The notes beneath the pieces are model-generated. The model searched no databases. It worked only from the letters and a program-made list of their open reading frames with translations, and had not been told where the DNA came from. 64,000 nucleotides of DNA, taken from NCBI GenBank assembly GCA_032622095.1, contig CP136061.1, positions 84,604,324 through 84,668,323 of the forward strand, given 5' to 3'. A program made the position numbers and the translations under genes. Positions 10,248 through 59,384 of this stretch are shown piece after piece. How positions within the stretch are numbered: position 1 is the stretch's first letter; every line of letters starts with the position of its first letter. Source of the stretch: Siphonodentalium dalli. Lineage: Eukaryota > Mollusca > Scaphopoda > Gadilida > Siphonodentaliidae.

Positions 10248-10710
10248 TATGTGACCTGCCATATCAAATCCAGTCGTAAGTCAGGATTTTTTACCCTGTG
10301 CCAATGCATTCTCTTATATATGCGAGTCGACCATAGGTCGCCTCGCATATATAAGAGAATGCATTGGCCTAACAATTTTTTTTACAATTTTAATAATTTT
10401 TTCTTGTATTCTTTAACAATTTTATAATTTCACCCATACAGAGCCCCAGACAAACATGAGCAGACAACACTCTTCTATATGCTTCTATATATGTGTGGGG
10501 CTCCCTGCAGGGTAATGGATGTTTTTTATTTTATGTCCTAAAAATTGTAAGAAACATTTATTTAAAAAAAATTCTAAAAAATTGTTAGGCCAATGCATTC
10601 TCTTATATATGCGAGGCGACCTATGGTCGACTCGCATATATAAGAGAATGCATTGGCACTGGGTAAAAAAATCCCGACTTACGACTGGATTTGATATGGC
10701 GGGTCACATA
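10248..10710. mobile_element. Composite hairpin MITE, TIR TATGTGACCYGCCATATC
   Basis: Ends are TATGTGACCTGCCATATC and its complement. Each arm continues into a ~69-bp near-perfect hairpin (10,300-10,368 and 10,589-10,657) built from GCCAATGCATTCTCTTATAT. Between them lies a ~200-bp AT-rich middle with a further GAGCCCC/GGGGCTC stem around 10,440-10,505. Other copies: 15,213-15,573 (cut short) and 38,471-39,410 (interrupted). Confidence 0.85.
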
Positions 10711-19262: not shown

Positions 19263-19509
19263 TCACATGGGTATTTGGAAATAGTGATCGCTGTTTAGAC
19301 TGTCAGACACATTTCCGTCGTTCACTGATCGGTTTATGATCAGACTGTTTTGTTGATCGAAGTGTGTACTGTTATAACTGCCTGTATTTTGCGAGTCATC
19401 AAGTTCAGTTTTTCCGTACGGCGTCTGATATGGCATGCTGACAGTGTCCTCTTCTGGCAACTCATCTGTCTGATGCTTATACGAGAACAAAATACTTGGC
19501 TGCGATTTC
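19263..19509 (-). CDS. TPRA1: TPRA1 exon 10: cytoplasmic tail and stop
   Basis: Acceptor TGTGTTTCAG|G precedes the codons for [16 protein letters not shown]. Residues 328-408, then TGA at 19,263-19,265. ILFSYK and the later ST-x-FD motif are family hallmarks of the tail. The remainder is polar and Ser/Asn/Asp-rich, as expected for a cytoplasmic tail. Confidence 0.9.
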
Positions 19510-22500
19510 CTGAAACACAGAAGGAGAAATTATGTTTACCTGAATTTACTGTGTCTGACATTTGCAGAATGAGGTCCCCAGAGGGTGAATTTAGCGTCTA
19601 TCCTGTACAGTGGGCTAACATCACCAAATTCACCATCTGAGCACCTCATTCTGCTTAGGCACATCTTCTGGGAAGTCTCTATAGTCTCAAATTAACGTTG
19701 TTTTTAGTTGCTTTTTCCCTTCTGTTCAGTTTCTATATCCTCTAATTTGGTGATGCTATCCCACTGTGCGGAATAGCATAACTAAATTCACCCTCTGGGG
19801 ATCTCATTCTGCAAAGGTGAGACACATTAATTTCAGGCTTAATACTATATGGTAGATTTTTATCACAGCTGCATGTTATATGTTATTAAATTGGTTTCAC
19901 CTTACCTGAAGAAATCTCTAAGAAATGTACCATACACCAAATGGTCAAAGAGGGTGAAATAGATTAAATTACCTGAAGAAATCTCAAAGAAATGTACCGT
20001 ACACCAACGGGTCAAACAGCATGAAATAGATTAAATTACCTGAAAAAATCTCTAAGAAATGTACCGTACACCAACGGGTCAAACAGCATGAAATAGATTA
20101 AATTACCTGAAGAAATCTCTAAGAAATGTACCGTACACCAAATGGTCAAACAGCGTGAAATAGATTAAATTAACTGAAGAAACTATCAGAAATGTACCGT
20201 ACACCAAATGGTTAAAGAGGGTGATATAGATTAAATTAACTGAAGAAATCTCTAAGAAATGTACCGTACACCAAAGGGTCAAACAGCATGAAATAGATTA
20301 AATTACCTGAAGAAATCTATCAGAAATGTATCGTACACCAACGGGTCAAACAGCGTGAAATAGATTAAATTAACTGAAGAAATCTCTAAGAAATGTACCG
20401 TACACCAAATGGTCAAACAGCGTGAAATAGATTAAATTACCTGAAGAAATCTATCAGAAATGTACCGTACACCAAAGGGTCAAACAGAGTGAAATAGATT
20501 AAATTAACTGAAGAAATCTCTAAGAAATGTACCGTACACCAAATGGTCAAACAGCGTGAAATAGATTAAATTAACTGAAGAAATCTCTAAGAAATGTATC
20601 ATACACCAAATGGTTAAAGAGGGTGAAATAGATTAAATTACCTGAAGAAATCTCTAAGAAATGTACCGTACACCAACGGGTCAAACAGTGTGAAATAGAT
20701 GTAAGTTGTTACATCAACCATACTGAAAAAAGAAGAAAGTAATAATTTTAGTTCTTCACTAAATAGATTTAGGCAGGTAGACCACAAACAAAGAATTTAT
20801 TTTTTAATTTTAAAACTAAATAATTTTAATTCACATGTCAGTAAACATTAAGTTTAAATAATAAAATAACAGATTCCCATTACAGTGCACAACCCTAACC
20901 CCTAACACTAATCCTAAACCTATTGACCAAAAAATGTAGGAATAAAAGCTCGGACAAAATTAGGCATGTTGCGAAACTTTTCAAAGACGAAAAAGGGATA
21001 ACTCCACCAAATAATGTCCAACAGACATCATAATCGCAGGTGCACAGGTTCCTATGGTGGTTAATGTCTGTGCCAAGTGTCACGGAAAATGATTAAAAAA
21101 CGACTGAGAAAAACACCGGACATTTTTGTCCGCAGATGGACAAGCTGATTCCAGTATGGTTATTGTTATAACAATAACCATCTCAAAGACAAATAGGATC
21201 CGGCCTTTGTTGAAATGCTGGTGTTTGTTTATACACATTCCTGGCAATTTCTATATCTCACAATTACAAATAACAAAAGTTATAATTGTCTCAAACTGCA
21301 CATGCCTTCCTTGGGTCTGCACGTATATTAAATTTTATCAGGATTTCCATCCTGCAGGTTTATTTGGCTCCACACGTTTATTTGGAAACAGTAGAGTATG
21401 CGATGTGGGTACTAACCAATGTCCGTCTTTCTCATTAAAGTAAATAAATGCGCTCCCGACGGCCTGCACAAGATTCAGCAACGACAACAGTAAGGCATAG
21501 TAGTAAAAGGCTTTCTTCGCTGAAAGAATAAAGAGTAGAACATTAATCATAGACTCAATCACAAGAATAAAGAGTAGAACATTAATCATAGACTCAATCA
21601 CAAGAATAAAGAGTAGAACATTAATCATAGACTCAATCACAAGAATAAAGAGTAGAACATTAATCATAGACTCAATCACAAGAATAAAGAGAACATTAAT
21701 CATAGACTCAATCACAAGAATAAAGAGTAGAACATTAATCATAGACTCAATCACAAGAATAAAGAGAACATTAATCATAGACTCAATCACAAGAATAAAG
21801 AGTAGAACATTAATCATAGACTCAATCACAAGAATAAAGAGTAGAACATTAATCATAGACTCAATCACAAGAATAAAGAGTAGGACATTAATCATAGACT
21901 CAATCACAAGAATAAAGAGTAGAACATTAATCATAGACTCAATCACAAGAATAAAGAGTAGAACATTAATCATAGACTCAATCACAAGAATAAAGAGTAG
22001 AACATTAATCATAGACTCAATCACAAGAATAAAGAGAACATTAATCATAGACTCAATCACAAGAATAAAGAGTAGAACATTAATCATAGACTCAATCACA
22101 AGAATAAAGAGTAGAACATTTATCATAGACTCAATCACAAGAATAAAGAGTAGAACATTAATCATAGACTCAATCACAAGAATAAAGAGAACATTAATCA
22201 TAGACTCAATCACAAGAATAAAGAGTAGAACATTAATCATAGACTCAATCACAAGAATAAAGAGAACATTAATCATAGACTCAATCACAAGAATAAAGAG
22301 TAGAACATTAATCATAGACTCAATCACAAGAATAAAGAGTAGAACATTAATCATAGACTCAATCACAAGAATAAAGAGAACATTAATCATAGACTCAATC
22401 ACAAGAATAAAGAGTAGAACATTAATCATAGACTCAATCACAAGAATAAAGAGTAGAACATTAATCATAGACTCAATCACAAGAATAAAGAGTAGAACAT

Positions 22501-25500
22501 TAATCATAGACTCAATCACAAGAATAAAGAGTAGAACATTAATCATAGACTCAATCACAAGAATAAAGAGTAGAACATTAATCATAGACTCAATCACAAG
22601 AATAAAGAGTAGAACATTAATCATAGACTCAATCACAAGAATAAAGAGTAGAACATTAATCATAGACTCAATCACAAGAATAAAGAGTAGAACATTAATC
22701 ATAGACTCAATCACAAGAATAAAGAGTAGAACATTTATCATAGACTCAATCACAAGAATAAAGAGTAGAACATTAATCATAGACTCAATCACAAGAATAA
22801 AGAGAACATTAATCATAGACTCAATCACAAGAATAAAGAGTAGAACATTAATCATAGACTCAATCACAAGAATAAAGAGAACATTAATCATAGACTCAAT
22901 CACAAGAATAAAGAGTAGAACATTAATCATAGACTCAATCACAAGAATAAAGAGTAGAACATTAATCATAGACTCAATCACAAGAATAAAGAGTAGAACA
23001 TTAATCATAGACTCAATCACAAGAATAAAGAGAACATTAATCATAGACTCAATCACAAGAATAAAGAGTAGAACATTAATCATAGACTCAATCACAAGAA
23101 TAAAGAGAACATTGATTATATATTGGTGGTGAGGGTTAATTATTATATATTTGAGTTCGATAACATGTGTCTATGGATTTGGTGGTGAGGGTTAATTATT
23201 ATATATTTGAGATGGATAGAATGTGTCTATGGATTTGGTGGCGAGGGTTAATTATTATATATTTGAGTTGGATAGCATGTGTCTATGGATTTGGTGGTGT
23301 GGGTTAATTATTATATATTTGAGATGGATAGAATGTGTCTATGGATTTGGTGGTGAGGGTTAATTATTATATATTTGAGTTGGATAGCATGTGTCTATGG
23401 ATTTGGTGGTGAGGGTTAATTATTATATATTTGAGTTGGATAACATGTGTCTATGGATTTGGTGGTGAGGGTTAATTATTATATATTTGAGTTCGATAAC
23501 ATGTGTCTATGGATTTGGTGGTGAGGGTTAATTATTATATATTTGAGTTCGATAACATGTGTCTATGGATTTGGTGGTGAGGGTTAATTATTATATATTT
23601 GAGTTCGATAACATGTGTCTATGGATTTGGTGGTGAGGGTTAATTATTATATATTTGAGTTCGATAACATGTGTCTATGGATTTGGTGGTGAGGGTTAAT
23701 TATTATATATTTGAGTTCGATAACATGTGTCTATGGATTTGGTGGTGAGGGTTAATTATTATATATTTGAGTTCGATAACATGTGTCTATGGATTTGGTG
23801 GTGAGGGTTAATTATTATATATTTGAGTTCGATAACATGTGTCTATGGATTTGGTGGTGAGGGTTAATTATTATATATTTGAGTTCGATAACATGTGTCT
23901 ATGGATTTGGTGGTGAGGGTTAATTATTATATATTTGAGTTCGATAACATGTGTCTATGGATTTGGTGGTGAGGGTTAATTATTATATATTTGAGTTCGA
24001 TAACATGTGTCTATGGATTTGGTGGTGAGGGTTAATTATTATATATTTGAGTTCGATAACATGTGTCTATGGATTTGGTGGTGAGGGTTAATTATTATAT
24101 ATTTGAGTTCGATAACATGTGTCTATGGATTTGGTGGTGAGGGTTAATCTATCTATTATATATTTTGAAAGATCTGTGTGTTTGTGTGTGTGTGTGTTTG
24201 TGTGTTTGAAATCGATGGAATCGAAAACGACTAAGCCAATTTCGATGAAACTTGGTATTTGGATGTGTTTTCGGCCGGAGACGAACATAGGCATATTTAT
24301 TTGTCCGTGCGAGGTCAACTTTTCACGTGCGGAGGTCAAATCTATTTTTAAGCCGTTTTTGCGCTAATATATTTCAGTTCGGTGCTCACAAATCGATTCG
24401 ATATAGCGCGAATAATAAATTGCCAGTCATATAATTTGCACGGTTAGAATCTGTGTGGCTTCATCTTTCCAACGATATATAATATGTATGTATCCGTTTT
24501 AGTTATCTGCCTCAATTATTAGGTACAAGTGGTACGATGCTTTTATCAGGATAAAATCAATGCGTAATTTCTATGACGTCGTCAGAGGTCATAAAGTTAG
24601 ATTACGTTAACTCTCACCCTGCCGATGCATTTGACTGTGTCGCGTTAACTCATCACCGGCCGAGGTATCCGCAAATGACATTGGGCTATATATCTCGGAA
24701 ACGGGTGTAGCTATCGACTTGAAATTTGGTATGTGAATGTATCTTGCCCCGGATACGAATTTTATCGGGTCGCCGAGCACGTGCGCGCATGCGCAGACCA
24801 GATCTAGGAAACGGGTGGAGCAATCGACTTGAAATTTGGTTTTTGAATAGCCCGGACGAAGTCGGGTCACCTTCTAGTACTATATATTTTGAGACTTCGT
24901 ATATATGTGTGTGTGTGTGTGTGTACTTCATAGAATCCAAAACGCGTGTAAAGATTGAGCTCAAACTTCCTATGTAAGTGTCAAATCCCACCGACACGAC
25001 CGTGGTCGTGGTTTAGAGAAGCTCAGAGCACCCGTTCTCCAATCTCAAATCACCGCAAAGGCACGGCGGGGGTTAATCAAGTGATTATTTAATGAGCGTT
25101 TGTTTTTGACGCATCTCTATAAAGAGCGTCTGTTTCCCATTCAACGTTATTCGCATCTGCAGAGTTATACGGGAACGCAAACGTTATCGCTCGAAATTTA
25201 TTCCCTGTGAGCACGGATGGCGCGCTTTGTTTTTACCGAAATCATCCCAGATAATCACGAATATAGCATCAGATTTCTCCCCAGATATACCGTTATAAAG
25301 CTACTGGAATCTGCCAATCTACGGGAAATTCCAGGGAATGCCGATTGAGCTCAAACTTGCTACCTACGGGAAGTGTCATATATATGAGTGTGTCCATTAT
25401 AGACTCTAACCGATTGATCTCAAACTTGCTAAATAAGAAAATAGCCCCCAAGCCGTAAATATCAACAACAACGATATTACTAAATACACGTTTTCGGCAA

Positions 25501-28500: not shown

Positions 28501-31500
28501 GAAATTACCATTTCATACAGTTGACAATTACATGCGTTTTAACCACAAAATCATGTTGTTTTGCAATTTATAACTGCGTTTAAAGTCTAAACGAAATGCG
28601 GTTTAATTGGGGCCATCCAAATTTGTATAGGTGCCAAATTGGGTACCATGTTTGAAAAACATATCTCAATCCATGCGAATGATTAATCATGATGGCACAT
28701 GATCGTCAATAGTCCAAGTCTTCTCGTACTAAAACTAGCTAAGATTTTGGGATGGAGAGATGCTAGTATTTAGTCCGAGATCGCGCGCATAGCCTTCTTA
28801 TGACACGAGTTAAGCGTTAATGACCCGCTCAAATAAAACCACAATTATATGAAATAAAATATCACAATTGCGACAATAAAAGATATTTTCCGCAGAAGAC
28901 ATGCTATTTGATCTGAACCCCACATCAGTTGTGAATTGAAAGCGGTAATTTAATGCGAAAAGAGACATTTACCGCAATGATTAAATTTTTTTAAAAGTAT
29001 GCGAACTCAGTTGACCTCGCGAACTGTGTTCGGCATTTTCCGTTGAAAATATTCTGTAGATTTTCGACTGACAACGCAAATTACGATGAATTCTCCATTG
29101 TAATCGTAATTATGTGTGTCAATAAATAAAAAATAAATAGATTAATTAAACATTGAAGATATAAATGTAATACATTAAATAAATTACGGGGAATTACAAC
29201 CCTCTCAAAGTTTAAAACAGTGTAAACACAACGAGCATTAGAATAAATAATATGGTGCTACATTTCCCACATTTGGTGGACTTCAGCGAAATTAAGATAT
29301 ATACTAAGCGAACAGAGCAATATACTGCTCTTGTTAAGCACACAAAAAATCAAACAAAATTTGTATAAATTTTTAACCTTAAGTTTGAAAAGTCCCACTA
29401 AAACGGAAGAACTATATTTCGAAACTGTGTGATTCGGTATATAGCATCATGTATTGCTTTGTTAGGTAAATCGAGTAAAATACACCACAGATTCCCGCCA
29501 CAGATCCTGGGCGTAACTCGTGTCATAAGAAGGCTATGCGCGCGATCTCGGACTAAATACTAGCATCTCTCCATCCCAAAATCTTAGCTAGTTTTAGTAC
29601 GAGAAGACTTGGACTAGATTGTAATGAAGGAGCATGTCAATGTCATTCAGAAAGGCAAACTTGTGGCACTATTAAAGAAAGTAAGCTGGCCCAAAAGGTT
29701 ACACAACAAATTTTATCCTGAGACTGTTTGTTTGCTGCATTATTACTGCAGAAATTTGACTGCGTACTGGGATGAGCAATCCCAGTTTCCACCAAAACAG
29801 GGAAAAGGAGCATTTGGTACCGTCAAATTTAACTATAATTGTTAAAGTGATGTGAAACACTCCAGTAGGGTGATCAAACAGCGTCCTGAATCGAGATGTA
29901 AATATTTACAATTGAGCGTAGTTCAGACAGTGTTTTCTATGGAGTGGTATGGTCAATTTCTTTGAAATTTTCTGCGTTTGTTATAGAATGCTACATTCCC
30001 CAGGTTTGTATAGCGCCTGAGTACTAACTTATCAATTTCACGCACCCGAACAAGTCCATAATATTCTTTAAATATAACTATAATAGTTGTATTGAGGATG
30101 TGCCTGACCTGTATACAAGGTGGACTCTTCCATTCAGTTATAAAAGTATCCTGGGTGTTCAGGACAAATAAGTGTAGAAGGATTCCTATTTATCAGAGGG
30201 AAATGTTCAGATAATAAGATTTTTGAACGTAATATTATCAGAACATATTCTAATGGATAACTAATCGTCAATGAAACAAACAAACTGGTTGGTTGCTTAT
30301 TATGTAAATGTGTGTAATGATGTCGTATGATTTTTCTATATATCGTGAAACTGAATTTCTGCCATGGTTCACTAAATAGGGGTTAAAATCACATGACTTC
30401 TGGTCACTTATTGCCATCGAATTGATATCCCATCTCGAAGCAATTGACCGACCAAAGTGATTGCCAAAGTGTGGAATTGGCAATGGACCAATGGAAAAAA
30501 TATGAAATTGGCTAATTCGGGACAGACCTCAGGATCTACAGTATGCGCAGACAGCTAACGATTAATAAGATCCATACTGACCTGGTAGCTGTACTCGATG
30601 ACGGACAAAGGTCCATGGCAGGATGAATATCAGTGAATATGTCTGAAATAAAACATGTAACTATGAGGATGAATACCAGCGAATATGTCTGCAATAACAC
30701 TATTTATGATATGCTTACCTACAAAATAGGGAAAAATTACCAAAACGTAGATCGTATTATGTATCTCTTTGAAGCTCACTGAAATACAATTTTTTTATTT
30801 CATTATAGCTTTCATTATTTCACTGTAGCTCGATGAATGAGTCGAATGACGTCATGATTTTTTCCTTGAGAGGGGTTTGCTACCTCTTAGCTGATTGGTG
30901 TCAGAAATTTGAGTCAACAATACACGATGGTGCTTTCTGTGTATTGTTCCCCGAACACATTGGACACATAAAAAGTTGTACTTAAAGCGCTATTCCAAGT
31001 TTCCTTCGACGTAAACCAGCTAGTGAAATTGGTAGAAACTATACTGATTTATGTCAAAGCATTCTCACTTTACCTGTTTATAATGGACTTTAACCCTTTA
31101 CCCAACAGAACGGCCCTGTGCCAATGCATTCTCTTATATATGCGAGTCGACCATATACCATAGGTCGCCTCGCATATATAAGAGAATGCATCGGCTTAAC
31201 ACATATTAAAAACGATAAAATTTTCAAAGAATGTAGAAAAATATTATATAAAAATTGTTAATAAATGTAAGAAAAAATTATAAAGTTGTTAAAGAATTTT
31301 TTAGGCCAATGCATTCTCTTATATATGCGAGGCGACCTATGGTCGACTCGCATATATAAGAGAATGCATTGGCACAGGGCATAACTGTAACCATCACAAT
31401 GTGGTCAATGAACCGGTTCCAATGATATCCATATTTGTATGGTGTTATTGAGACAGACCGAAGATATTTTAGGCTGTTGAAGCTTTATTTGGGCGTTTTT

Positions 31501-52500: not shown

Positions 52501-55500
52501 TTGAGACACCTACATACCAAGTTTCAATCAAATCGGATGATCATTACTGGAGTTATAACTCTGGACGGACGCACAGACACACGGACGGACGGACTGAGCT
52601 GATTACAATAGTCCCCGAAAATAAATTTTACGGGGGACAAAAAATAGGCCTGATGCTTCTTGAGAAGAAGACATTTTAAAAAATACTATAGGGGGAAACG
52701 TGATGTCCCTGGCATTTCGCTCATATTTGACCCAGTGACCCAATTGCAACAAATCTGCATCCCAGTCACTTAGGGACCATCCACACCAAATATGAATCAA
52801 TTTTTACTTGAAGTTCTGGAAAAGATGTTGACAGACATGTAAAGCTGGGTCTACAGGGGGAATATGCACCTGGATTCAGCGATACAGACATGTACAGCTG
52901 TGTCTACATGGGAATATGTACCTGGATTCAGCGATGTAAAGCTGGGTCTACATGGGGAATATGTAATGGGATTCAGCGATACAGACATGTACAGCTGGGT
53001 CTACATGGGGAATATGTACCTGGATTCAGCGATGTAAAGCTGGGTCTACATGGGGAATATGTACCTGGATTCAGTGATACAGATATGTAAAGCTGGGTCT
53101 ACATGGGAATATGTAACTGGATTCAGCGATACAGACATGTAAAGCTGGGTCTACATGGGAATATGTACAGTACCTGGATTCAGTGATACAGACATGTAAA
53201 GCTGGGTCTATGTACATGGGGAATATGTACCTGGATTCAGCGATACAGAAATGTAAAGCTGATTCTACATGGGGAATATGTAACCGGATTCAACAATGTA
53301 AAGCTGAGTCTAAATGGGGAATATGTACCTGGATTCAGCGATACAGACATGATAAGCTGATTCTACATGGGAATATGTGACTGCATTCAGTAATGTAAAG
53401 CGGAGTCTAAATGGGGAATATGTACTACTCTAGTAGCTCATGGTGGTTTTGTATGCACTTGTATGTCCAGAGCAAAACTCTTCATGAATCCACTAATTGA
53501 AGGTACACGAACAATATTTGGTTGGTGACACATTTCCCATTGAGGGCGAAATGGGCCAAATGGCCACGCCCCTTTTTGCGCGAAGTACTACCACCCGCCG
53601 TGACTATATCTCCAGAACCGTTGGACATAGGGGGTCGTGTGACCACTCAAAATGTGCGGAATGGACACATTATGGGGGGTCAGTAATACATTTTCATATC
53701 CAAAAGTCAATGGTTTTTAAGATAATTGCCAAAAACCAAAAAAAATCAATTTTTAAGGGCCCAATTTTGGGGTTCAGCACTTTTATCTCAAAGCTGAGCC
53801 CCCAATTCGAATTTTATTGATCTATATCCATCGGTACCACATATAGGTATAATTTCTGTACCATTATCGGATGGGATTGACCTTCAAGGAGCTCTTGACC
53901 CTGAAAATCCACATTATGGGGGGTCAGTAATACATTTTCATGTCCAAAAGTCAATGGTTTTTAAGATAATTGCCAAAAACCGATTTCAGCATGTTACGCA
54001 CCACAAGTATACAATACCACCAAGGCCACAGCATGGCTTATTCTCACTTTGCCGACGAGCCTGGAAAAATATCGCCGACAAGGTGTGATCGTCGCGCCTA
54101 TAGTCTGTATTAATTAAATGACAGTTTTCCCGGCTCCCGTTTGCAATGTTGTTTTGGCATGCCGCTAAACGAGTTTCACACGAGTCGTCATCCGATGAGC
54201 GATTTTCATGTTCACTCAGTGAAATAGTAGTAAACTGTTATTCGTATTGAGCGATCGTATTGAGCTATAAAAACCCCATGTCTCTCCAAAGTTGATCATA
54301 TTCAATGTTCTATCTTCATCATGGCAAGTTCTCAAGTAAATGTATTCTTCATCGCCAATGATCGAGGCAAACACCTGGTCTTCAACGACTTCAAATTCCG
54401 CATCAAATCACGTCGATCCGAGAATGTCCACTGGGTGTGTTGTAAGAATGGCTGTGGTGCCACCATCAACACAAAGAACGAGATATTTAGTTCTTCAATG
54501 AGTCAACACAACCATCTAGCCAATTCTGACCAGGTACGACACATGCATTTTTTTTTCAAATTCTTATAAAGAGCATCCATTCTTCTCTAAACAAAACGTC
54601 AGACAATAAAGAGCGTTCTAATTTATAATAATATTTAACTGATATATCTATATTCAAAAAATAGACATCAAATCTAATTTTATTTCTTTTTAACAGGTTA
54701 TGGCTCTACCATCAGATGTACACGATACATGCATTCGTCGACAACAATATGTTGCCACTTGTGTATGGATTCCTGTCGAACAAGAATCAGGCGACATACA
54801 CCAGATTCTTCCAGACACTAAAACAAACGGCCAACGATTTCAACATCCAGCTTAATTCGACGTGCCATCGCCTTACCATTCGTCCCCGTCGACCAGTTGA
54901 GCGATGATTGGCTCAATGTACTAGAAGAATGGGAAGAATATATGGAAACAACAGACCGCCCAATCGACGACCGCGTGACAAAGTTTTCCGATTCTGTGAC
55001 TATGCAGTGGAATGAAGTTGACGAAGGCCGTACCATGTGGAATCACTATAATACAACCGGCACCCGGACCACAAACCACGTCGAATGGTGGCACAGAAAA
55101 CTTCAAGGTTATATAGCCTATACAGAATCGACTATACTTCAACTGACTGGTGGCGACAGAGTTCAACCACAGAGAAGAAAATATCGGGCGGTCAACGCGT
55201 CTCTTAGACATTTCAAGAGAATATTAAGGGAAAACGAGATCGACGTTGTAGAATACTTAGATTCAATCGCTAAATTAGTTCGCCATTGAGTTTTTTGTTA
55301 AAGTATTGTCGTGTATTTGTTATTTGTTTGTTATCTCCTTGGATGTATTTTATTAATTATTTTGCATCAATAAATAAATAAAACATGACAGATTAGTTCA
55401 TCACATCAACATTGAATCAGCACCAAAGGTTCCAAAACCCTCGTTCCCAAATTGACAAATCATTAATAACCTACAAAAAGAGAGGACAAACCATTAAAAC

Positions 55501-58500
55501 ACCAAAAGAAAAGAGGAATAGACTATAAGCGGCAAATGATTGAAGTAAGGGATTATTGACACCTCGTGCAGGTACCCCCGGAATCAATAGCCGTCGGCAA
55601 AGTGAGATGCTCCCCACAGCATATGTATGACACTTTTTAAAGAAGTATCCGAATTCTCTGATCGACTTACATGTGTAAGAGCACAATTGACCACACACAA
55701 TGGGATTAGCTGGAAATTGCTGCTGAGGATGTGTTGACCCCGACACACAACATGAGCTCTTCATGACTGAACATGCCTTGGAAACTGGTGTGCTTTACCA
55801 AAAATCAGGTAACAATTGTGCTCTAATCAACAGAAATGTACAGATTGAACAAAACAGGTTTTCAAAATTTGTTATCAACATTTAACAGCTGATCTGATTT
55901 AAGTGACCAAGCTATGAAACATGCTAAACACTTTTACTAAATGGAATGACCAGCTGTTTGCTTCATGCAGCAGCCACATGTTGCGATCCTAAAATGGGTA
56001 TTGCATCTGGGCATAGTAAAAACATGTTGTAATCAGATGAGAGATGACCATATATACCAGTATATATTTCAGAAGTAATCAATTCTTCACAAAAAGTTTT
56101 AGGAAATGATGGAATTAGTTTTGATTGGCCATGATAGTTGCAGCACTTGCAGGTTGGAGAAGATGAGGGTCTATAATTTCACTAACATAATTCTTCATAA
56201 TAGCTAATAGCCCTCATAACTTACCATTTTAAAGATATTTTCATTTTCAATACCACCCCAGGTTAAGTGGTCCTGCTAATTTTATATTATGCTGATGGGT
56301 ACTGCTGGATTGCTATGATGTTTGTAGGTCAAAGCGATTCTGTTAAGTACCATTTTACCTAAAGTTGGTTATTTTGGCATTGTTTGGCTAATCCGAGCAA
56401 TTTGTGCAAAAGTCAGTGTCTGTATGAAACATTCAAGAACATATATACTTCAAAATATTTAATGTGTACGCTGATGATTGGTAAACAACAGGAATAGTCA
56501 TCTCAATTATGGCCAGTTTGTAAAAACCAGCACCCATTATTGAAATATTTCACAATATACATGTTTTTTAATGTTTTCTACACATAGTGGCTTATCCTCG
56601 ATTTGTTCAGATCGCTTTGCTCTACCTGAATATCATACCAAATTTATTAGCATCACCACTAAACTTGGGATGAATACTACCAAATGAATATATTGTGATA
56701 TACTAGTATAGGGCAATGGAAAAATAATGGTTGAGTCTTTTCTAAATATAATTCTAGTAAAACCTACACAATACCGTCTTGGTCTGATAAGACTCAGAGT
56801 CATGTTTATTTAGGAGTATAGACATGAAGTCCACCAGTCTCATGAAAATTAAATGGGCTCTGCACTAGTAACATCTGGGCTCCTGGGACCCATTAATATT
56901 GACAAATGCAACACACAAAAAAATACATAGTAACTTTCCTCAAACATAGATTATAACCTGACAATCATAGTGTTAGAATCAGTGTACATGTATATGTAGG
57001 CATGACCATAGCATGTTTTTGAAATACTGCAGAGTGCAGACCATAAATTTCACTAGAATATACATGTAGTTACTGCATGTACATCACACACATAAGGCGA
57101 CTGACACACATACACGTACATGCATGGTTCACAATATTTGACATGTAAAGTATATATATATATCTCCTGTGCCTATAACATCAAACCAAACGGTTTACAG
57201 TACTTTTACTGACATTTTTGGAGTGGCACATATACATACATAAAAAATAAAAGTCAATTTAAAGGGATGAAATGAAAAATAAATTTGTGCAACTATAATG
57301 GAGATCTATATAGCATTACAACATCCATAAATCTACAAAATCTACAACATCCACAAAAACATCTGACTATCATAGTCATTGGTAATGTGATCATTTTTCC
57401 TTGATAAGTTGAAACATGAACGAGGATTTCATAGCATGGCTACCTGCTGATGCTTGTATTTTTCTTCTAACTCTCTCGAGCTCACAACGCAACAGGATTG
57501 CATTCGGAATTTCAAGCCCATAAAGCTAGACACTTTAGAATCAAGCTTGCCAAATAAATTTCCATGAACCTCACATGAACTCACTCAGTTGAACACAAGG
57601 AACGATTGTCAAGTTGGAAAATATTCTGTATTTATGGAAGCCCTATATTTTTAATGTGTGGATTTATTATAACTGGACATGTATTTGTTAGTTTTGAACA
57701 GGACAATATATTTTAATATTACTGCAACTGCAGGCATAGGCAATCATGCCAGGCTAGCCATTATTTGTTCTAAAATAATGTACGTGTTAGGGAAATTGTA
57801 GAACCTTTATACAAAATGGTGATGCAGCCAATCAAAATTGATGTGGGACTGATAAAGACACAACCTGCTCGACTACCGAATCATACTGATTGATCAAATT
57901 GTAGTAACTCAACATTTACTAAACCTACTTGTGGGCTGAGTATAATTCAATTCAACATTAGAATACCATAAAAACACCCTGTTCTCCCATAAGTTTAAAG
58001 AAAATAACACATTGAACTCATTTACAAGTATATTGCTAATGTGATATATGTCATTCCATTTATAACCATTTTGACAGCCATCTCACATCAAAGGCCATGA
58101 CATCTAGATAACAAAAGATGAACTTCATTCAAATTATATCACCAGGTAACCTTTTTGTAGGAGTTTTGGGTTACTGATCAAATACCCAATAATTAATGAT
58201 TTCCTCAACATCTTTGTTATTGGGAAAATGTCTGTTTTTCATTCTACGACCAATATATTCCATCCAAAAACCTTATTTTCAGGGTCAAGAGCTGCTTGAA
58301 GGTCAATCCCATGCGATAATGGTACAGAAAATATCCGAAATGATACCTGTATGTGGCACCGATGGATATAGGTCAATAAAATTCTAATTAGGGGCATAGC
58401 TTTGAGATAAAAGTGCTGAACCCCAAAATTGGGCCCTTAAAAATGGATTTTGTTTTGTTTTTGGCAATTATCTTCAAAACCATTGACTTTTGAATATGAA

Positions 58501-59063
58501 AATGTATTACTGATTTACTGACCCCCCATAATGTGTCCATTCCGCACATTTTGAGTGGTGACACGACCCCCTATGTCCAACGGTTCTGGAGATATAGTCA
58601 CGGCGGGTGGTAGTACTTCGCGCAAAAAGGGGCGTGGCCATTTGACCCATTTCGCCCTCAATGGGAAAAGTGTCACCAACCAAATATTGTTCGTGTACCT
58701 TCAATTAGTGGATTCATGAAGAGTTTTGCTCTGGACATACAAGTGCATACAAAACCACCATGAGCTACTAGAGTATACCTGGATTCAGCGATACAGACAT
58801 GTACCGTACATCTGGGTCTACATGGGAAATATGTACCTGGATTCAGCGATGTCTTCATACAGAATCCATTGACATGGTGGAGGTGTTGTAATGTCATGTA
58901 TTGGAATAACACTTCCATTTGGTTCATTGGCAAAAGTGTCCACAAGAATTTCTTGGCCAGCAGCAGCTGTTGAAGCCTCCTTGATTGACATATGAACAAT
59001 TGAACCAGTCATTTTTAATTTAGTTCCCACAGCAGATATATTCATCAACTCGTTCATCAACAT
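19263..59063 (-). CDS. TPRA1: TPRA1 (transmembrane protein adipocyte-associated 1 / GPR175) orthologue, 10 coding exons
   Basis: Join of 59,063-58,837, 48,495-48,363, 47,744-47,655, 40,619-40,547, 37,306-37,227, 32,183-32,052, 30,642-30,582, 21,519-21,417, 20,722-20,642 and 19,509-19,263. Every junction has GT-AG ends and matching phases, giving one open frame of about 408 residues (human protein about 370). Recognisable family landmarks in order: [21 protein letters not shown]...[29 protein letters not shown]-type turn, [30 protein letters not shown]. This is a seven-pass membrane protein (UPF0359/TPRA1 family) with an extracellular N-terminus carrying an NGS glycosylation site. Vertebrate members are reported to influence Hedgehog signalling and early cell division. 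The fit with known family sequence is recalled, not computed. The reading frame is intact, but several junctions are duplicated (see exon entries). The start codon is uncertain: a later ATG (codon 18) is also possible. Confidence 0.92.
19535..19835. mobile_element. GAGGTCCCC-hairpin MITE in TPRA1 intron 9
   Basis: GCAGAATGAGGTCCCCAGAG at the left and complementary GGGGATCTCATTCTGC at the right. The first hairpin lies 57 bp upstream of the exon-10 acceptor. Confidence 0.7.
19906..20708 (-). repeat. 12-copy tandem array of the TPRA1 exon-9 end plus splice donor
   Basis: Unit about 67 bp. Read on the minus strand each unit encodes [17 protein letters not shown] followed by CAG|GTAA-type donor sequence and about 10 bp of intron. 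The unit most distal to the acceptor (19,906) ends CAG|GTAAGG, probably the ancestral donor. Several internal copies read CAGTTAA, losing the donor. Most units carry a complete exon end but none has its own acceptor. Because 67 is not a multiple of 3, skipping to a later donor would shift frame. Confidence 0.92.
20642..20722 (-). CDS. TPRA1: TPRA1 exon 9: transmembrane segment 7
   Basis: Acceptor TTTTTTCAG|T, then codons for [20 protein letters not shown] and FLRDFF. Phases are 2 in and 2 out: TG|T makes Cys 300, AG|G makes Arg 327. Only the first array unit carries the true 5' part of the exon (MVDVTTYI). The nearest donor is CAG|GTAATT at 20,641-20,636; eleven further donor copies lie downstream, so which one is used is open. 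Confidence 0.9.
20723..21416 (-). other. TPRA1 intron 8
   Basis: 694 bp with no recognised repeat. A 62-codon open frame at 20,895-21,083 does not fit the neighbouring phases and is not an exon. Confidence 0.6.
21417..21519 (-). CDS. TPRA1: TPRA1 exon 8: transmembrane segment 6
   Basis: Acceptor ATTCTTTCAG|CG, codons for [20 protein letters not shown] and [13 protein letters not shown], donor TG|GTTAGT. Residues 267-299, phase 1 in and 2 out. Matches the family RRSFYVYA..LALLNLLQGLGS region. The acceptor directly abuts a ~41-unit minisatellite. Confidence 0.9.
21523..23110 (-). repeat. 39/36-bp minisatellite (~41 copies) forming the exon-8 acceptor region
   Basis: On the minus strand the unit contains ATTGAGTCTATGATTAATG then TTCTACTCTTTATTCTT. 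The last copy merges into the exon-8 polypyrimidine tract and AG. About a quarter of units lack 3 bp (36 bp). All lengths are multiples of 3 and no unit has a stop, so a 585-codon frame (13-residue repeat [13 protein letters not shown]) reads through the array into exon 8 in the exon's own frame. Confidence 0.95.
23111..24147. repeat. 56-bp satellite, first part (~18 copies)
   Basis: Unit contains GGTGGTGAGGGTTAATTATT, ATATATTTGAG and CATGTGTCTATGGATTT. The right-hand copies are nearly identical (homogenised), the left-hand ones are more varied. The array continues at 25,914 beyond a Helitron. Confidence 0.95.
24148..25913 (+). mobile_element. Non-autonomous Helitron
   Basis: Starts TC (TCTATCTATTATAT) after an A and ends with hairpin GCCGCCAGTGGCGGGC, ten bases and CTAG before a T. 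This is the canonical Helitron 5'-TC...CTRR-3' with A^T insertion. Removing it rejoins the 56-bp satellite exactly (GGTTAA^TTATTATATATT). No Rep/helicase frame is present. GT-rich runs at 24,176-24,205 and 24,905-24,925 and several copies of GAAATTTGGTAT-like sequence are internal. Confidence 0.9.
25914..26140. repeat. 56-bp satellite, second part (~4 copies)
   Basis: Continuation of the 23,111-24,147 array after the Helitron; more divergent units. Two further units lie at about 27,199-27,293. Confidence 0.9.
26669..26850. mobile_element. 182-bp MITE, TIR TACTCTCAGGTGCC
   Basis: Perfect 14-bp terminal inverted repeats (TACTCTCAGGTGCC / GGCACCTGAGAGTA) with internal CACTATTATT repeats. TA ends are compatible with a mariner-type TA target (inference). 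Absent from duplication copy 2. Confidence 0.8.
26898..27030 (+). repeat. ~22-bp minisatellite (TACCCTACATGGYATTATGTG)
   Basis: About six units in copy 1, and about four at 27,543-27,625 in copy 2. The difference in copy number shows it has moved since the duplication. Confidence 0.85.
27294..27790. repeat. Segmental duplication, copy 2
   Basis: Partner of 26,141-27,193. It continues into the complete MITE at 27,754-28,104, whereas copy 1 has only that MITE's left ~40 bp before joining satellite sequence. Confidence 0.7.
27754..28104. mobile_element. MITE, TIR AGTGMAYGTTCAGACGACCA
   Basis: Inverted ends AGTGAACGTTCAGACGACCA and its near-complement, ~30 bp long, 351 bp apart. Non-coding. The truncated left end also occurs at 27,157-27,193. 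Confidence 0.75.
28105..28709. other. Unassigned intron sequence
   Basis: Two copies of GAATTTCATTTCTATGACAT (near 28,288 and 28,440) form a loose repeat. Nothing else recognised. Confidence 0.4.
28710..29616. mobile_element. 907-bp MITE, TIR TAGTCCAAGTCTTCTCGTAC
   Basis: Terminal inverted repeats of about 95 bp run from TAGTCCAAGTCTTCTCGTAC to ACACGAG and are nearly perfect. Full-length relative of the 100-bp element at 3,879. The interior is AT-rich without a transposase. Confidence 0.85.
29617..30581 (-). other. TPRA1 intron 7, unassigned part
   Basis: No element or exon recognised. Short open frames at 29,624-29,845 (plus) and 30,268-30,483 (minus) lack any recognisable family. Confidence 0.4.
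30582..30642 (-). CDS. TPRA1: TPRA1 exon 7: end of transmembrane segment 5 and following loop
   Basis: Acceptor TTTTATTTCAG|, codons for [20 protein letters not shown], donor CCAG|GTCAGT. Only 61 bp; residues 246-265 and the first base of Ala 266. It matches the family block [20 protein letters not shown]. A second copy of its acceptor and first ~26 bp lies 46 bp upstream. Confidence 0.9.
30643..30697 (-). repeat. Duplicated acceptor of TPRA1 exon 7
   Basis: ATTGCAG|ACATATTCGCTGG at 30,688 repeats the real ATTTCAG|ACATATTCACTGA at 30,642, offset 46 bp. Use of the upstream AG would shift the frame. Confidence 0.85.
31090..31526. mobile_element. TTAA-flanked MITE with two embedded hairpins
   Basis: TTAACCCTTTACCCAACA to TTGGGTAAAGGGTTAA. 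Contains hairpins 31,120-31,195 and 31,305-31,373. It inserted beside TTAAAGAGATAATCCATC (31,523-31,545), a lone terminus of the 1,866-2,404 family. Confidence 0.8.
31564..31846. mobile_element. TTAA-flanked MITE with one embedded hairpin
   Basis: TTAACCCTTTGAGTGCCAGG at the left, ATTAAAGGGTTAA at the right, hairpin at 31,614-31,682, then the GAGCCCC...GGGGCTC middle of the composite hairpin family. Right end recombined. Confidence 0.7.
32052..32183 (-). CDS. TPRA1: TPRA1 exon 6: extracellular loop and transmembrane segment 5
   Basis: Acceptor TTGTTCCTAG|, codons starting [12 protein letters not shown] and ending [11 protein letters not shown], donor CTA|GTGAGT. Residues 202-245, phase 0 in and out. 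Corresponds to the family GTLEILYPD...YGHGGRQFWLVSSCFFFL block. Confidence 0.92.
32446..33562 (-). mobile_element. Non-autonomous hAT element with BED-finger remnant
   Basis: Terminal inverted repeats TAGAGATGGGCGGTT / AACCGCCCATCTCTA, flanked by a perfect 8-bp target duplication CTCCTTAA (32,438-32,445 and 33,563-33,570). Eight-bp duplications with YAGAGRTG ends define hAT. Both ends carry repeats of CGGTTTCGGTT. A short transposase-start exon lies near one end. Confidence 0.9.
33333..33443 (-). pseudogene. BED zinc-finger start of a hAT transposase (36 codons)
   Basis: ATG at 33,443. The frame encodes [20 protein letters not shown] followed by NICRKEF and stops with TGA at 33,333. SPVWKYF and C-x2-C are the start of the BED zinc finger found at the N-terminus of hAT/ZBED transposases. 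The His pair and the catalytic domain are missing. Confidence 0.75.
34172..35117 (+). mobile_element. Pearl/HINE-like element, family F1
   Basis: Starts AACAAGACAGTCAATGACTG and ends CTTCGTCTCAGGTGAGCTAA. Two core units and a short GGACGGACGAC stretch lie before the 3' hairpin. Split by an insertion around 34,263-34,750. Confidence 0.75.
34427..34605. repeat. Hairpin insertion in the F1 element
   Basis: Inverted arms TATTTTATACGTAATTTATC and complement, meeting at GAGCCTCGGTAAACCTCGGC near 34,515. Followed by an A/T-rich tract to ~34,760. Confidence 0.6.
35118..35639. other. Unassigned intron sequence
   Basis: No exon or named element; AT-rich. Confidence 0.4.
35640..36080. mobile_element. 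GAGGTCCCC-hairpin MITE
   Basis: CAGAATGAGGTCCCTAAAGG hairpin at the left (35,671-35,762), diverged hairpin at the right (35,965-36,057), and the family middle with AATTTGGGGGATATAG. Confidence 0.75.
36440..36869 (+). mobile_element. F1 pearl-like element, 5'-truncated
   Basis: About two core units, a GGACGGACGGATGGATGG microsatellite (36,778-36,805) and the family 3' end GAGACTTCGTCTCAGGTGAG plus A-run. The 5' hairpin end is absent. Confidence 0.75.
37227..37306 (-). CDS. TPRA1: TPRA1 exon 5: transmembrane segment 4
   Basis: Acceptor TTTTTTTCAG|GT, codons for [20 protein letters not shown] and VYSVTQ, donor CAG|GTAACT. Residues 176-201; G|GT completes Gly 175. Matches the family GHLESKSSIKRVL...AYSVTQ. 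Confidence 0.92.
37345..37640. repeat. 30-bp satellite (9 copies) just upstream of the exon-5 acceptor
   Basis: Unit AGGGACCCATGTTACTCACA plus GAGTTATTAA. Its edge at 37,345-37,380 (GTCTGTATAACGTCACCACT) matches the 69-bp satellite at 61.9-62.9 kb, so both arrays descend from one repeat. It starts about 40 bp from the splice acceptor. Confidence 0.9.
37641..38065. mobile_element. GAGGTCCCC-hairpin MITE, left end lost
   Basis: Partial first hairpin from AAGGGTAGATTTAATGACGC, the family middle, and a complete right hairpin (37,965-38,043). The left end is replaced by the 30-bp satellite. Confidence 0.7.
38092..38195 (+). repeat. 32-bp tandem repeat (~4 copies)
   Basis: Unit AAGCCTGAAGGTCATTCCAC plus ACAATATT. 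Confidence 0.9.
38471..39410. mobile_element. Composite hairpin MITE interrupted by an F3 element
   Basis: Hairpins at 38,496-38,564 and 39,300-39,368, the GAGCCCC/GGGGCTC middle, and a right TIR containing TCCCGACTTACGACTG. The left TIR is shortened. The F3 element sits inside the AT-rich middle. Confidence 0.8.
38760..39283 (+). mobile_element. Pearl/HINE-like element, family F3
   Basis: Begins AAAGGTCAGCAGACC (hairpin) then ACAGTGTCCCCCGAC, and ends with hairpin CGACGGAAACGTCG then GGGGGACAAAAA. TGTCCCCCGAC is the complement of GTCGGGGGACA. Two ~165-bp core units and an ACGGACGGACGCACGG stretch (39,194-39,235) lie between. The second copy is at 51,833-52,640. Confidence 0.85.
40079..40147. 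mobile_element. Solo copy of the GCCAATGCATTCTC hairpin
   Basis: 69-bp hairpin with a different loop (GACTCCCTTTGGGAGAC) from the usual GTCGACCATAGGTCGCC, and no composite-MITE flanks. Confidence 0.8.
40165..40390 (+). repeat. 33-bp minisatellite (7 copies)
   Basis: Unit TCCAGTCATGGAAGGGTTAA plus TAAGGGAGGTAAC. The unit length of 33 keeps three frames open; these are not genes. Confidence 0.95.
40526..40546 (-). repeat. Duplicated donor of TPRA1 exon 4
   Basis: GGGCTTGCTTTCG|GTAAGTTT occurs twice, 21 bp apart (donors at 40,546 and 40,525). Use of the outer donor would add seven codons in frame. Confidence 0.9.
40547..40619 (-). CDS. TPRA1: TPRA1 exon 4: transmembrane segment 3
   Basis: Acceptor TTTAATTTCAG|, codons for [20 protein letters not shown] and GLAF, donor TTTCG|GTAAGT. 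Residues 151-174 plus the first base of Gly 175. Matches the family [25 protein letters not shown]. Confidence 0.93.
40628..41345 (+). mobile_element. Diverged F2-type pearl-like element
   Basis: AAGTGTCAATTTAGCTCAAT at the left resembles the F2 start. Two or three decayed units with AAAATCCAA, GGCGGCCATGTTTTTTG and GGATTTAGTCATGC follow. The right end is unclear. The left edge lies about 6 bp from the exon-4 acceptor AG. Confidence 0.5.
41845..43601 (-). mobile_element. Mutator-like (MULE) transposon with FLYWCH finger, copy 1
   Basis: Terminal repeats share TTCTCACTTGTCCGGCAGG. Flanked by the direct repeat GCTGACAG (41,837-41,844 and 43,602-43,609), an 8-bp (9 with one mismatch) target duplication as expected for Mutator. 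An 18-bp AT-rich tandem repeat (~6 copies) lies at 42,085-42,195, after the transposase stop. Confidence 0.85.
42191..43341 (-). pseudogene. FLYWCH-MULE transposase, broken
   Basis: Exon 1 (43,341-43,031): a FLYWCH zinc finger, W-x-C near [10 protein letters not shown] and H-x-H at QHNH, interrupted by one TAA. Intron 43,030-42,910 has GT-AG ends and matching phase 2. Exon 2: a MULE DDE domain with FFCDGTF (first Asp), [14 protein letters not shown] (second Asp), GCYFHYSQA and [10 protein letters not shown] (Glu). It contains one in-frame TAG near 42,851 and a frameshift near 42,395-42,420; the final stop is at 42,191. Enzyme role: cut-and-paste transposition in the nucleus. All catalytic residues are recognisable but the gene cannot make a full protein. 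Confidence 0.85.
45149..46340 (+). mobile_element. Pearl/HINE-like element, family F4
   Basis: Begins CGAGA then hairpin GGCCGATCACGATCGGC and ATGTTAACCCATCCC, and ends with hairpin CCATACTATGG and GGTATGGGTAAACATAAAAA. Two ~150-bp core units (GGGYCATAACTC... TTTGAGTTATSGC) and a GACAGACGGACAGACGG stretch (46,250-46,275) precede the end. The host F2 unit rejoins exactly (CAAAGAGTA^AAATCCAAG). A lone half of the GCCAATGCATT hairpin lies at 45,318-45,340. Confidence 0.8.
46485..47240 (+). mobile_element. F1 pearl-like element, 3'-truncated
   Basis: Starts CAAGACAGTCAATGACTGTT; three core units follow, ending abruptly near 47,235 without the 3' hairpin. Confidence 0.7.
46659..46803. mobile_element. 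145-bp palindromic MITE
   Basis: ATATAGTCCATAGTCTGTTC and near-complement enclose arms with GAAGCAAACAGGTACACTCC, meeting around 46,733. Inserted in the F1 element. Confidence 0.75.
47241..47654 (-). other. TPRA1 intron 3, unassigned part
   Basis: No element recognised. A G-rich stretch (GGGGGGAAATGTTGTGGGGG and similar) lies at 47,605-47,641, 14 bp into the intron after exon 3. Confidence 0.45.
47655..47744 (-). CDS. TPRA1: TPRA1 exon 3: end of transmembrane segment 2 and first extracellular loop
   Basis: Acceptor TTTAATTACAG|, codons for [20 protein letters not shown] and [10 protein letters not shown], donor AAG|GTTTGT. Residues 121-150, phase 0 in and out. The family motif is ARAVVSMTV...VADKILW. 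N-A-S is a potential glycosylation site. Confidence 0.92.
47935..48305. mobile_element. Dispersed repeat with GGGGAATAACTCT hairpin
   Basis: Second copy of the 10,740-11,085 repeat. Hairpin at about 48,032-48,082. Confidence 0.65.
48306..48362 (-). repeat. Duplicated donor and exon end of TPRA1 exon 2
   Basis: The last ~45 bp of exon 2 plus GTAA are repeated 54 bp downstream (ATATATTTGCTGCTTTT, TATGGTTTG|GTAA). The proximal donor is GTAAGT, the distal one GTAAAG. The stretch between the donors is open, so distal use would add 18 codons in frame. Confidence 0.9.
48363..48495 (-). CDS. TPRA1: TPRA1 exon 2: transmembrane segment 1
   Basis: Acceptor TTTTCTTTCAG|A, codons for [20 protein letters not shown] then [20 protein letters not shown] and FYGL, donor TTG|GTAAGT. 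Residues 77-120; AG|A makes Arg 76, reproducing the family SRVR.WDL at this junction. Confidence 0.93.
48540..48960. mobile_element. GAGGTCCCC-hairpin MITE
   Basis: Hairpins at about 48,562-48,643 and 48,830-48,922 with the family middle. The left edge is 45 bp upstream of the exon-2 acceptor. Confidence 0.75.
48961..49277. other. Unassigned intron sequence
   Basis: No recognised feature. Confidence 0.4.
50620..51385 (+). mobile_element. Fifth pearl-like family: ~165-bp core units plus ACGG tract
   Basis: Four units carry TTGCGAACTCATTCTAGATA, AATCTTTTAAATCCGTTGAC and AAAGTCCAATAACTC. They are followed by GACGGACAGACGGAACGG (51,270-51,306) and a hairpin-like end GTTAGCGAAAAACG. The exact 5' end is unclear. 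Confidence 0.6.
51833..52640 (+). mobile_element. Pearl/HINE-like element, family F3
   Basis: AAAGGTCAGCAGACCACAGT start and TTTTACGGGGGACAAAAAA end. Core units with CATAACTC and an ACGGACGCACAGACACACGG tract (52,563-52,592). The host F1 unit reads on across it. Confidence 0.8.
52840..53432 (-). repeat. Minisatellite made from the TPRA1 exon-1 splice donor, main block
   Basis: About eleven ~50-bp units. On the minus strand each contains TCGCTGAATCCAG|GTACATAT, i.e. the last bases of TPRA1 exon 1 and its donor, followed by TTCCCCATGTAGACCCAGCT from the intron. Compared with the true exon the unit lacks an 8-bp piece (GAAGACAT). It continues at 58,777-58,836 beyond a 5.3-kb insertion. Confidence 0.9.
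54035..55613 (+). mobile_element. FLYWCH-MULE transposon, copy 2
   Basis: Terminal repeats share TCTCACTTTGCCGACG. Perfect 9-bp target duplication CCACAGCAT (54,026-54,034 and 55,614-55,622). Related to copy 1 (TTCTCACTTGTCCGGCAGG ends) but a different subfamily and the opposite strand. AATAAATAAATAAA at 55,368-55,382 may serve as polyadenylation signal. Confidence 0.9.
54321..55289 (+). pseudogene. FLYWCH-MULE transposase with catalytic deletions
   Basis: Exon 1 (54,321-54,533) is intact: [10 protein letters not shown] start, [11 protein letters not shown]-x-C ([10 protein letters not shown]) and QHNH, a complete FLYWCH finger. Donor CAG|GTACGA and acceptor TTTTTAACAG delimit an intron (54,534-54,696). 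The rest is two frames: 54,716-54,907 with [20 protein letters not shown], and 54,897-55,289 with [12 protein letters not shown] and [15 protein letters not shown]. Against copy 1, the part with the first Asp (CDGTF) and the part with the second Asp and the C-x-F-H motif are both missing, each deletion changing frame. It cannot be catalytically active, but the DNA-binding finger is preserved. Confidence 0.85.
55623..58261. other. Interior of the 5.3-kb element, unassigned
   Basis: AT-rich (about two thirds A+T), without a recognisable gene. A minus-strand frame at 55,764-55,615 reads through the MULE insertion point when the MULE is removed, but I recognise no family. Confidence 0.4.
58777..58836 (-). 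repeat. Exon-1-donor minisatellite, proximal block
   Basis: The true donor CCAG|GTACAT (58,837/58,836) is followed at about 50 bp by a second copy, CGCTGAATCCAG|GTATAC, at which the 5.3-kb element has inserted. Confidence 0.85.
58837..59063 (-). CDS. TPRA1: TPRA1 exon 1 (first coding exon): N-terminus
   Basis: Codons 1-75 and two bases of Arg 76, ending [13 protein letters not shown] with donor [24 protein letters not shown] aligns with the family CLLLLYEDIGTSR. Exon start by sequence: acceptor AATTTCAG at 59,140-59,142, with 5' UTR 59,064-59,139. The chosen ATG (59,063) is the first after an in-frame stop; the ATG at 59,012 (MTGSIVHMS) would give a length nearer to vertebrates. An imperfect 44-bp duplication (AACAAGTTGATGAATATGAC / AACGAGTTGATGAATATATC) lies across the UTR/start. 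The N-terminus has an NGS glycosylation site and no signal peptide. Confidence 0.88.
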
Positions 59064-59384
59064 CAGAAGAAATCAGCAGTCATATTCATCAACTTGTTCA
59101 TGTGCCTTCCATACTTGGATAAATGTGGAAGAGAGGAATCTGAAATTATTCAATATTAAATTAACAATTTAACACGACACTTACCAGGTCTCACTTGTGT
59201 GCAAACCTGACTATAATATAGTTAACCCTTTACCCAACATAACGGCCCTGTGCCAATGCATTCTCTTATATATGCGAGTCGACCATAGGTCGCCTCGCAT
59301 ATAAGAGAATGCATTGGCTTAACACATATTAAAAATGATAAAATTGTCAAGGAATGTAGAAAAATATTATAAAAATTGTTAAAC

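What the first reader, a model, noticed from the sequence alone, without database searches (positions are those of the whole stretch)
19263..59142. TPRA1 splice junctions are tandemly duplicated again and again
Six of nine coding junction regions have a local tandem duplication of splice-site sequence: exon 1 donor (~13 copies), exon 2 donor (2), exon 4 donor (2), exon 7 acceptor (2), exon 8 acceptor tract (~41), exon 9 end plus donor (12). In addition, exon 1 has a 44-bp duplication at its start, exon 10 coding sequence has a copy past the stop, and a satellite begins 40 bp from the exon-5 acceptor. Units range from 21 to 67 bp and share no sequence, so this is not one repeat spreading. Possible explanations: selection for redundant splice sites in a gene whose introns are full of transposons, or a replication/repair process that preferentially duplicates at exon edges. 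I know of no described system like this.
Basis: partly seen in the sequence, partly recalled or inferred. Interest (0 to 1): 0.9.

Follow-up and report, generated by a model that had tools for sequence, protein, structure and literature searches.

The report
Tandem duplications straddling splice donor sites
In a large mollusc-like genome full of tandem repeats, short stretches covering the end of an exon and the start of the next intron have repeatedly been copied head to tail, in this gene and in a sample of others, leaving rows of spare splice sites while the gene itself stays readable.

Summary
TPRA1 lies on the minus strand with ten intact exons (402 aa, PF10160); six exons have a short tandem duplication at an edge, as described. 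Array copy number differs between this locus and a partial copy on another chromosome, so these are mutable minisatellites, not an assembly artefact.

Inside the gene 6 of 15 unique short-period arrays touch a splice edge (0.8 expected, P=5e-5; post hoc, one gene). By base coverage there is no excess. As an outside control I took 69 kinesin-motor exons from the same genome: 9 of 69 donors are straddled by a duplication (1.6 expected from random windows, P=3e-5; 0.004 if exon-derived copies stay visible twice as long). Acceptors are at background (1-2 of 69).

Selection for spare splice sites is not supported: downstream copies have lost the donor in 4 of 13 and 5 of 12 copies, and 8 of 11 second donors examined bring a stop or frame shift.

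Best reading: minisatellites born across donors are tolerated because the exon-proximal donor still works. Whether donors are mutational hotspots is open.

The parts
58837..59139 (-). TPRA1 first coding exon (ATG at 59045; upstream AG at 59140-59141 suggests a further 5' UTR exon)
59030..59101 (-). 44-bp two-copy duplication at the start of exon 1 (5' UTR and first codons)
58776..58850 (-). exon 1 donor, copies 1-2
53426..58775 (.). TIR element inserted inside the exon 1 donor array; TIRs 174 of 176 identical, 3-bp flanking repeat GTA; same site occupied on C3
52831..53425 (-). exon 1 donor array, copies 3-13
48363..48495 (-). TPRA1 exon 2
48317..48410 (-). exon 2 donor duplication, 2 x 55 bp; present in all four copies of this exon found in the genome
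47655..47744 (-). TPRA1 exon 3 (no edge duplication)
40547..40619 (-). TPRA1 exon 4
40515..40562 (-). exon 4 donor duplication, 2.3 x 21 bp (three copies on C3)
37227..37306 (-). TPRA1 exon 5
37360..37641 (-). 30-bp satellite, 9.4 copies, 54 bp from the exon 5 acceptor (29.1 copies on C3)
32052..32183 (-). TPRA1 exon 6 (no edge duplication)
30582..30642 (-). TPRA1 exon 7
30620..30700 (-). exon 7 acceptor duplication, 2 x 46 bp
21417..21519 (-). TPRA1 exon 8
21524..23107 (-). 39-bp x 41 array repeating the pyrimidine tract of the exon 8 acceptor
20642..20722 (-). TPRA1 exon 9
19902..20700 (-). 67-bp x 12 array of the end of exon 9 plus its donor; GT kept in 7 of 12 copies; the last copy reads CAG|GTAAGG
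19263..19509 (-). TPRA1 exon 10 with stop; a 54-bp, 87% copy of part of it follows the stop

Best explanation
These are minisatellites born by local tandem duplication across exon-intron boundaries of a working gene, in a genome where tandem arrays cover roughly a fifth of the sequence. Shown: the exonic part is ancestral coding sequence, the intronic copies derive from it; copy number keeps changing; downstream donors decay. Inferred: splicing tolerates a duplication across a donor because the exon-proximal donor is transcribed first and stays next to the exon, so the protein is unchanged and the intron merely lengthens, while a duplication across an acceptor puts a spare acceptor upstream of the true one, which would more often be used and harm the gene. 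Duplications across donors are found more often than random placement predicts, so either they arise more readily at donors or they are better retained and more visible there; with the data here a birth or retention bias at donors is the more likely.
For: Exon parts conserved across molluscs. Reading on past the functional donor gives stops in exons 1 and 9 and an in-frame insert in exons 2 and 4. Donor GT lost in 4 of 13 exon 1 copies and 5 of 12 exon 9 copies. Copy numbers C1 versus C3 at 97.5% DNA identity: 30-bp satellite 9.4 versus 29.1, exon 4 donor 2.3 versus 3, exon 1 array part 10.9 versus 11.6. Random C1 sample: 18.6% of 210 kb in tandem arrays of period up to 200. Edge excess in TPRA1: 6 of 15 versus 0.78. 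Control family: 9 of 69 kinesin donors straddled versus 1.56 expected, P=2.6e-5, or 0.004 with twofold detectability; 7 of 69 by machine rule alone, P=0.001 or 0.036. Acceptors 1 of 69 strict, 2 with one borderline case, 1.56 expected. Flank-only arrays 2-3 among the 69 windows versus 3.5 expected. Donor to acceptor counts, TPRA1 and kinesins together, 13 to 3, two-sided P=0.02.
Against: Coverage-based and whole-array-length tests in TPRA1 show no significant excess. Kinesin-only donor versus acceptor contrast is weak (9:2 P=0.065; 9:3 P=0.15), and the donor-specific claim was formed after seeing the data. Two of nine kinesin donors (L040, L086) were assigned by eye where the machine rule did not flag them. 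One control family of 69 exons only; random windows may differ from genic sequence in age and transposon content. No transcripts were available.
Confidence: 0.6

Rival explanations
1. Chance plus visibility. Tandem arrays arise everywhere in this genome; those that include an exon edge are noticed because one copy is held constant by selection, and the rest of the introns is young transposon sequence. TPRA1 is simply a striking draw from many genes.
Confidence: 0.27
2. Selection for redundant splice sites that protect splicing in transposon-laden introns.
For: Two of the five TPRA1 junctions with a true spare site (exons 2 and 4) would give an in-frame insert without a stop.
Against: Spare sites at exons 1, 7 and 9 give stops; 8 of 11 second donors examined (7 kinesin, 4 TPRA1) bring a stop or frame shift; donors decay within arrays; 4 of 13 donor-array periods are multiples of three, as expected by chance.
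Confidence: 0.04
3. Arrays are kept because each unit ends in AG|GT and so acts as a dual-specific or recursive splice site that can be spliced through without effect.
For: The exon 9 unit (TTTCTTCAG|GTAA) and the exon 1 unit have this form; [quoted passage not shown]
Against: Only 5 of 13 duplicated donors are AG|GT (counted); GT is lost in several copies; no transcript data.
Confidence: 0.05
4. Assembly artefact (collapsed or stuttering consensus).
For: Long arrays are error-prone in assemblies in general (recalled).
Against: Copies differ from each other, arrays recur in a separately placed C3 locus with other copy numbers, and the same TIR element sits in both exon 1 arrays.
Confidence: 0.02

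Closest known systems
[quoted passage not shown] 2010, PMC2891723; potato RdRp case PMC4974935)
   Same: Short tandem duplication involving a splice-site motif in a coding gene; in both, premature stop codons make read-through of the duplicated sequence visible to mRNA decay.
   Different: There a duplication inside an exon creates a new intron flanked by the copies. Here an existing boundary is duplicated into an existing long intron; the intron's other end is elsewhere and the protein has no change at the junctions. PMC2891723 seen as passages; PMC4974935 only as a search listing.
Dual-specific splice sites in tandem repeats, e.g. human UBC (Duan et al. 2024, PMC10809524)
   Same: Splice sites multiplied by tandem repeats; some units here end in AG|GT.
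   Different: UBC repeats are coding units and sites are used as both kinds; here copies are intronic and 8 of 13 duplicated donors are not AG|GT. Abstract, outline and passages seen.
Intronic minisatellites
   Same: Units of 21-95 bp, head to tail, copy number variable between two loci about 97.5% identical.
   Different: The founding unit includes an exon end in the cases here, and straddling of donors exceeds random expectation in the sample tested.
Tandem splice sites NAGNAG / GYNGYN
   Same: Neighbouring alternative sites of one kind.
   Different: Those lie 3 bases apart; here spacing is 21-95 bp. GYNGYN paper PMC1779574 seen as a listing only.

Membership tests
Minisatellite | Tandem units of about 10-100 bp | tested here: met
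   Units 21-67 bp in TPRA1, 30-95 bp at kinesin donors
Minisatellite | Copy-number instability | tested here: met
   C1 versus C3: 9.4 versus 29.1, 2.3 versus 3, 10.9 versus 11.6 copies; no population data
Intron gain by tandem genomic duplication | Intron is bounded by the duplicate copies | tested here: not met
   Intron 9 runs on about 390 bp past the last copy to a different acceptor; exon 10 does not start with the unit's sequence
Intron gain by tandem genomic duplication | Intron position new compared with relatives | not tested
   No gene structures of relatives were available, only proteins
Dual-specific / recursive splice-site arrays | AG|GT at the unit boundary | tested here: not met
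   5 of 13 duplicated donors; met for exons 1 and 9 taken singly
Dual-specific / recursive splice-site arrays | Use as both donor and acceptor | not testable with these tools
   No transcripts
Transposon-derived satellite | Unit dispersed elsewhere in the genome | tested here: not met
   Edge arrays of exons 1, 2, 4, 7, 8, 9: 0% covered by dispersed matches in the window and in 210 kb of C1 (the exon 1 array was unmasked by hand because its two parts match each other). Whole-genome DNA search of the exon 9 unit did not complete

The most novel reading that the evidence does not exclude
In this lineage tandem duplications are born preferentially across active 5' splice sites, for instance where RNA polymerase pausing or U1-bound nascent RNA at donors provokes fork stalling and template switching, so that exon ends continually seed minisatellites that lengthen introns. 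The donor-acceptor contrast and the normal rate in the flanking intron are what distinguish this from general repeat richness.
Probability: 0.33. Interest if true: 0.85.

Novelty: new variant of a known kind. Interest (0 to 1): 0.62.

Why it matters
If donor-straddling duplication is a real bias, it is a new source of minisatellites and of intron growth, ties local DNA duplication to a landmark defined only at the RNA level, and offers thousands of natural tests of how splicing chooses among identical tandem donors. It would also give a ready reservoir for intron sliding and exon extension. If it is only visibility bias, it is a caution for reading repeat patterns near exons.

Tried and rejected
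Rejected: one repeat spreading (units unrelated, apart from one 12-bp match); transposon origin of the edge units; redundancy selection; AG|GT as a general requirement; new introns by exon duplication; assembly artefact. A possible donor-like duplication at 17963-18029 was looked at, but no coding exon was identified there. Three of the control windows' arrays (L075 1-160, L083 91-143, L086 46-87) lie on the acceptor side and were not counted as straddling; counting them raises acceptors to 2-3 of 69. Literature: seven paper searches were answered and showed no report of duplications straddling existing donors as a class; three failed. Reading frame of the control donors rests on the start of each profile match; the automatic split of units into exonic and intronic parts was unreliable and is not used.

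Selection of control exons: PF00225 matches in E-value order, ranks 1-81 of 123; 12 dropped (5 with open frames over 230 codons, 7 near-identical paralogue copies), 69 fetched as match +-150 bp. The rule was written down in the same turn as the first two fetches, before any of the sequences was looked at.

Full report
What is there. The window is C1:84604324-84668323 of a 2.227-Gb assembly in nine contigs. TPRA1 (transmembrane protein adipocyte-associated 1, PF10160) lies on the minus strand from 59139 to 19263 in ten exons with canonical splice sites and an intact 402-aa frame. A protein search gave 616 relatives at E<=0.001, of which the best 120 were listed; the best-scoring named ones are molluscs at about 55-66% identity. 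In an alignment with 12 mollusc proteins no junction carries an insertion or deletion, so the exon-proximal splice sites give the normal protein.

The duplications. Because the exonic parts are conserved coding sequence in relatives, the intronic copies are derived from the exons and not the reverse. The exon 1 donor array has 13 copies and was split by a TIR element of about 5.35 kb whose ends are 174/176 identical and flanked by GTA; the same element sits at the same site in a second locus. The exon 8 array differs from the others: it begins 5 bp from the acceptor and repeats the pyrimidine tract without the AG. In the exon 9 array the last copy reads CAG|GTAAGG and the functional first copy CAG|GTAATT, which suggests that the original intron start is now 736 bp downstream.

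Stability. A partial copy of the locus on C3 has exons 1-5, and two inverted copies (C1 and C3) have exons 2-3 (among the 30 candidates scored, matches to exons 6-10 lay only in the window). DNA identity C1 to C3 around exon 2 is 97.5%, and about 94% between the direct and inverted copies; all four exon 2 copies carry the donor duplication. Copy numbers differ: the 30-bp satellite at exon 5 has 9.4 versus 29.1 copies, the exon 4 donor 2.3 versus 3, the exon 1 array part 10.9 versus 11.6. These are ordinary unstable minisatellites.

Do spare sites matter? Exon 2 and exon 4 second donors would add 18 and 7 residues in frame. The second exon 7 acceptor and all 11 further exon 9 copies give a stop, and so does the second exon 1 donor. 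Of 11 second donors examined (four TPRA1, seven kinesin; two kinesin cases, L040 and L057, were not resolved by the script), 8 bring a stop or a frame shift. Donor GT is lost in 4 of 13 exon 1 copies and 5 of 12 exon 9 copies. Nothing here points to selection for redundancy.

Is the pattern more than chance in this gene? It depends on the null. Tandem repeat covers 21% of the window, and by coverage the edges are not enriched. Yet an array can only meet an edge when it is founded; counting founding units, 5-6 of 34-36 arrays touch an edge versus 1.4-1.7 expected (P 0.005-0.012), while using whole array lengths gives P 0.12-0.24 (cut-offs 14 and 16; at stricter cut-offs 4-5 arrays and P 0.008-0.03 versus 0.17-0.37). 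Restricted to unique short-period arrays it is 6 of 15 versus 0.78 (P=5e-5; 0.003 with twofold detectability, in which the split exon 1 array was unmasked by hand and counted once). All of this is post hoc on a gene chosen for being striking.

Outside control. A sample of 21 stretches of C1 (210 kb) gave 50 short-period arrays (2.4 per 10 kb; window 4.2) and 18.6% of bases in arrays of period up to 200. From 123 kinesin-motor matches in the genome I took 69 exons by a fixed rule. With period up to 75, 7 of 69 are touched by a duplication within 40 bp of the match, against 6 of 10 TPRA1 exons under the same procedure. With period up to 130, ten exons hold 13 arrays: nine straddle the donor (L040, L057, L060, L075, L077, L083, L086, L090, L098; seven by the machine rule, L040 and L086 by eye), one the acceptor (L096), and three lie on the acceptor side (L075, L083, L086). 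In 4000 random 450-bp windows of the C1 sample an array end straddles a pseudo-donor in 94 and a pseudo-acceptor in 87, and 205 have a flank-only array. Thus 9 of 69 donors versus 1.56 expected, P=2.6e-5 (0.004 with twofold detectability); with the seven machine calls alone P=0.001 (0.036). Acceptors: 1, or 2 with a borderline case, versus 1.56. Donor to acceptor counts over both data sets 13:3, P=0.02; kinesins alone 9:2, P=0.065. TPRA1 is still extreme: 4 of 9 donors versus 9 of 69, P=0.04. One control exon, L086, belongs to a kinesin-like match about 12 kb beyond the window's low end.

Reading. Tolerance alone predicts donors at background and acceptors at or below it. What is seen is acceptors and flanks at background and donors above it, which points to a bias of birth or retention at donors, or to greater visibility than the twofold I allowed. 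The proposed cause (polymerase pausing or RNA-DNA structure at 5' splice sites) is inference from general knowledge and untested here.

Against known kinds. It is made of minisatellites (features met), is not intron gain by exon duplication (boundary feature not met in intron 9), and is not in general an array of dual-specific sites (5 of 13 donors AG|GT). Seven answered literature searches showed no description of donor-straddling minisatellites as a class; subscription literature was not searchable.

Noticed in passing
C1:84604324-84668323 (window), C1:84693506(+), C3:210958379-210977093(-), C3:211003658(+): The 5' part of TPRA1 lies in a segmental duplication: a direct partial copy on C3 (exons 1-5) and inverted partial copies (exons 2-3) on both chromosomes, 94-97.5% identical around exon 2.
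   Followed up: partly
window 53426-58775: A young TIR element (ends 174/176 identical, 3-bp flanking repeat GTA) sits inside the exon 1 donor array; a FLYWCH-domain fragment lies within it (54264-54566).
   Followed up: partly
window 42378-43437 (-): Fragments with MULE transposase and FLYWCH domains in intron 3.
   Followed up: no
window 59250-59320, 31120-31690, 10310-10370: A palindromic sequence (ccaatgcattctcttatata...tatataagagaatgcattgg) recurs in the introns, looking like a MITE.
   Followed up: no
C4:274.2-275.5 Mb: One search shows many near-identical myosin motor exons spread over about 1.3 Mb, suggesting a tandem array of muscle-type myosin genes.
   Followed up: no
C1:84555545-84591911: Kinesin-like exons lie just below the window's low end; one of them (L086) has a roughly 95-bp duplication across its donor.
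   Followed up: partly
window 23123-24148, 25911-26147, 27193-27293: One 56-bp unit forms separate arrays at three places within 4 kb of intron 7, unlike the edge arrays, which are single-locus.
   Followed up: no
L075 both sides: A kinesin exon has arrays at both edges: 30 bp x 6 across the donor and a 68-bp repeat reaching the acceptor.
   Followed up: partly
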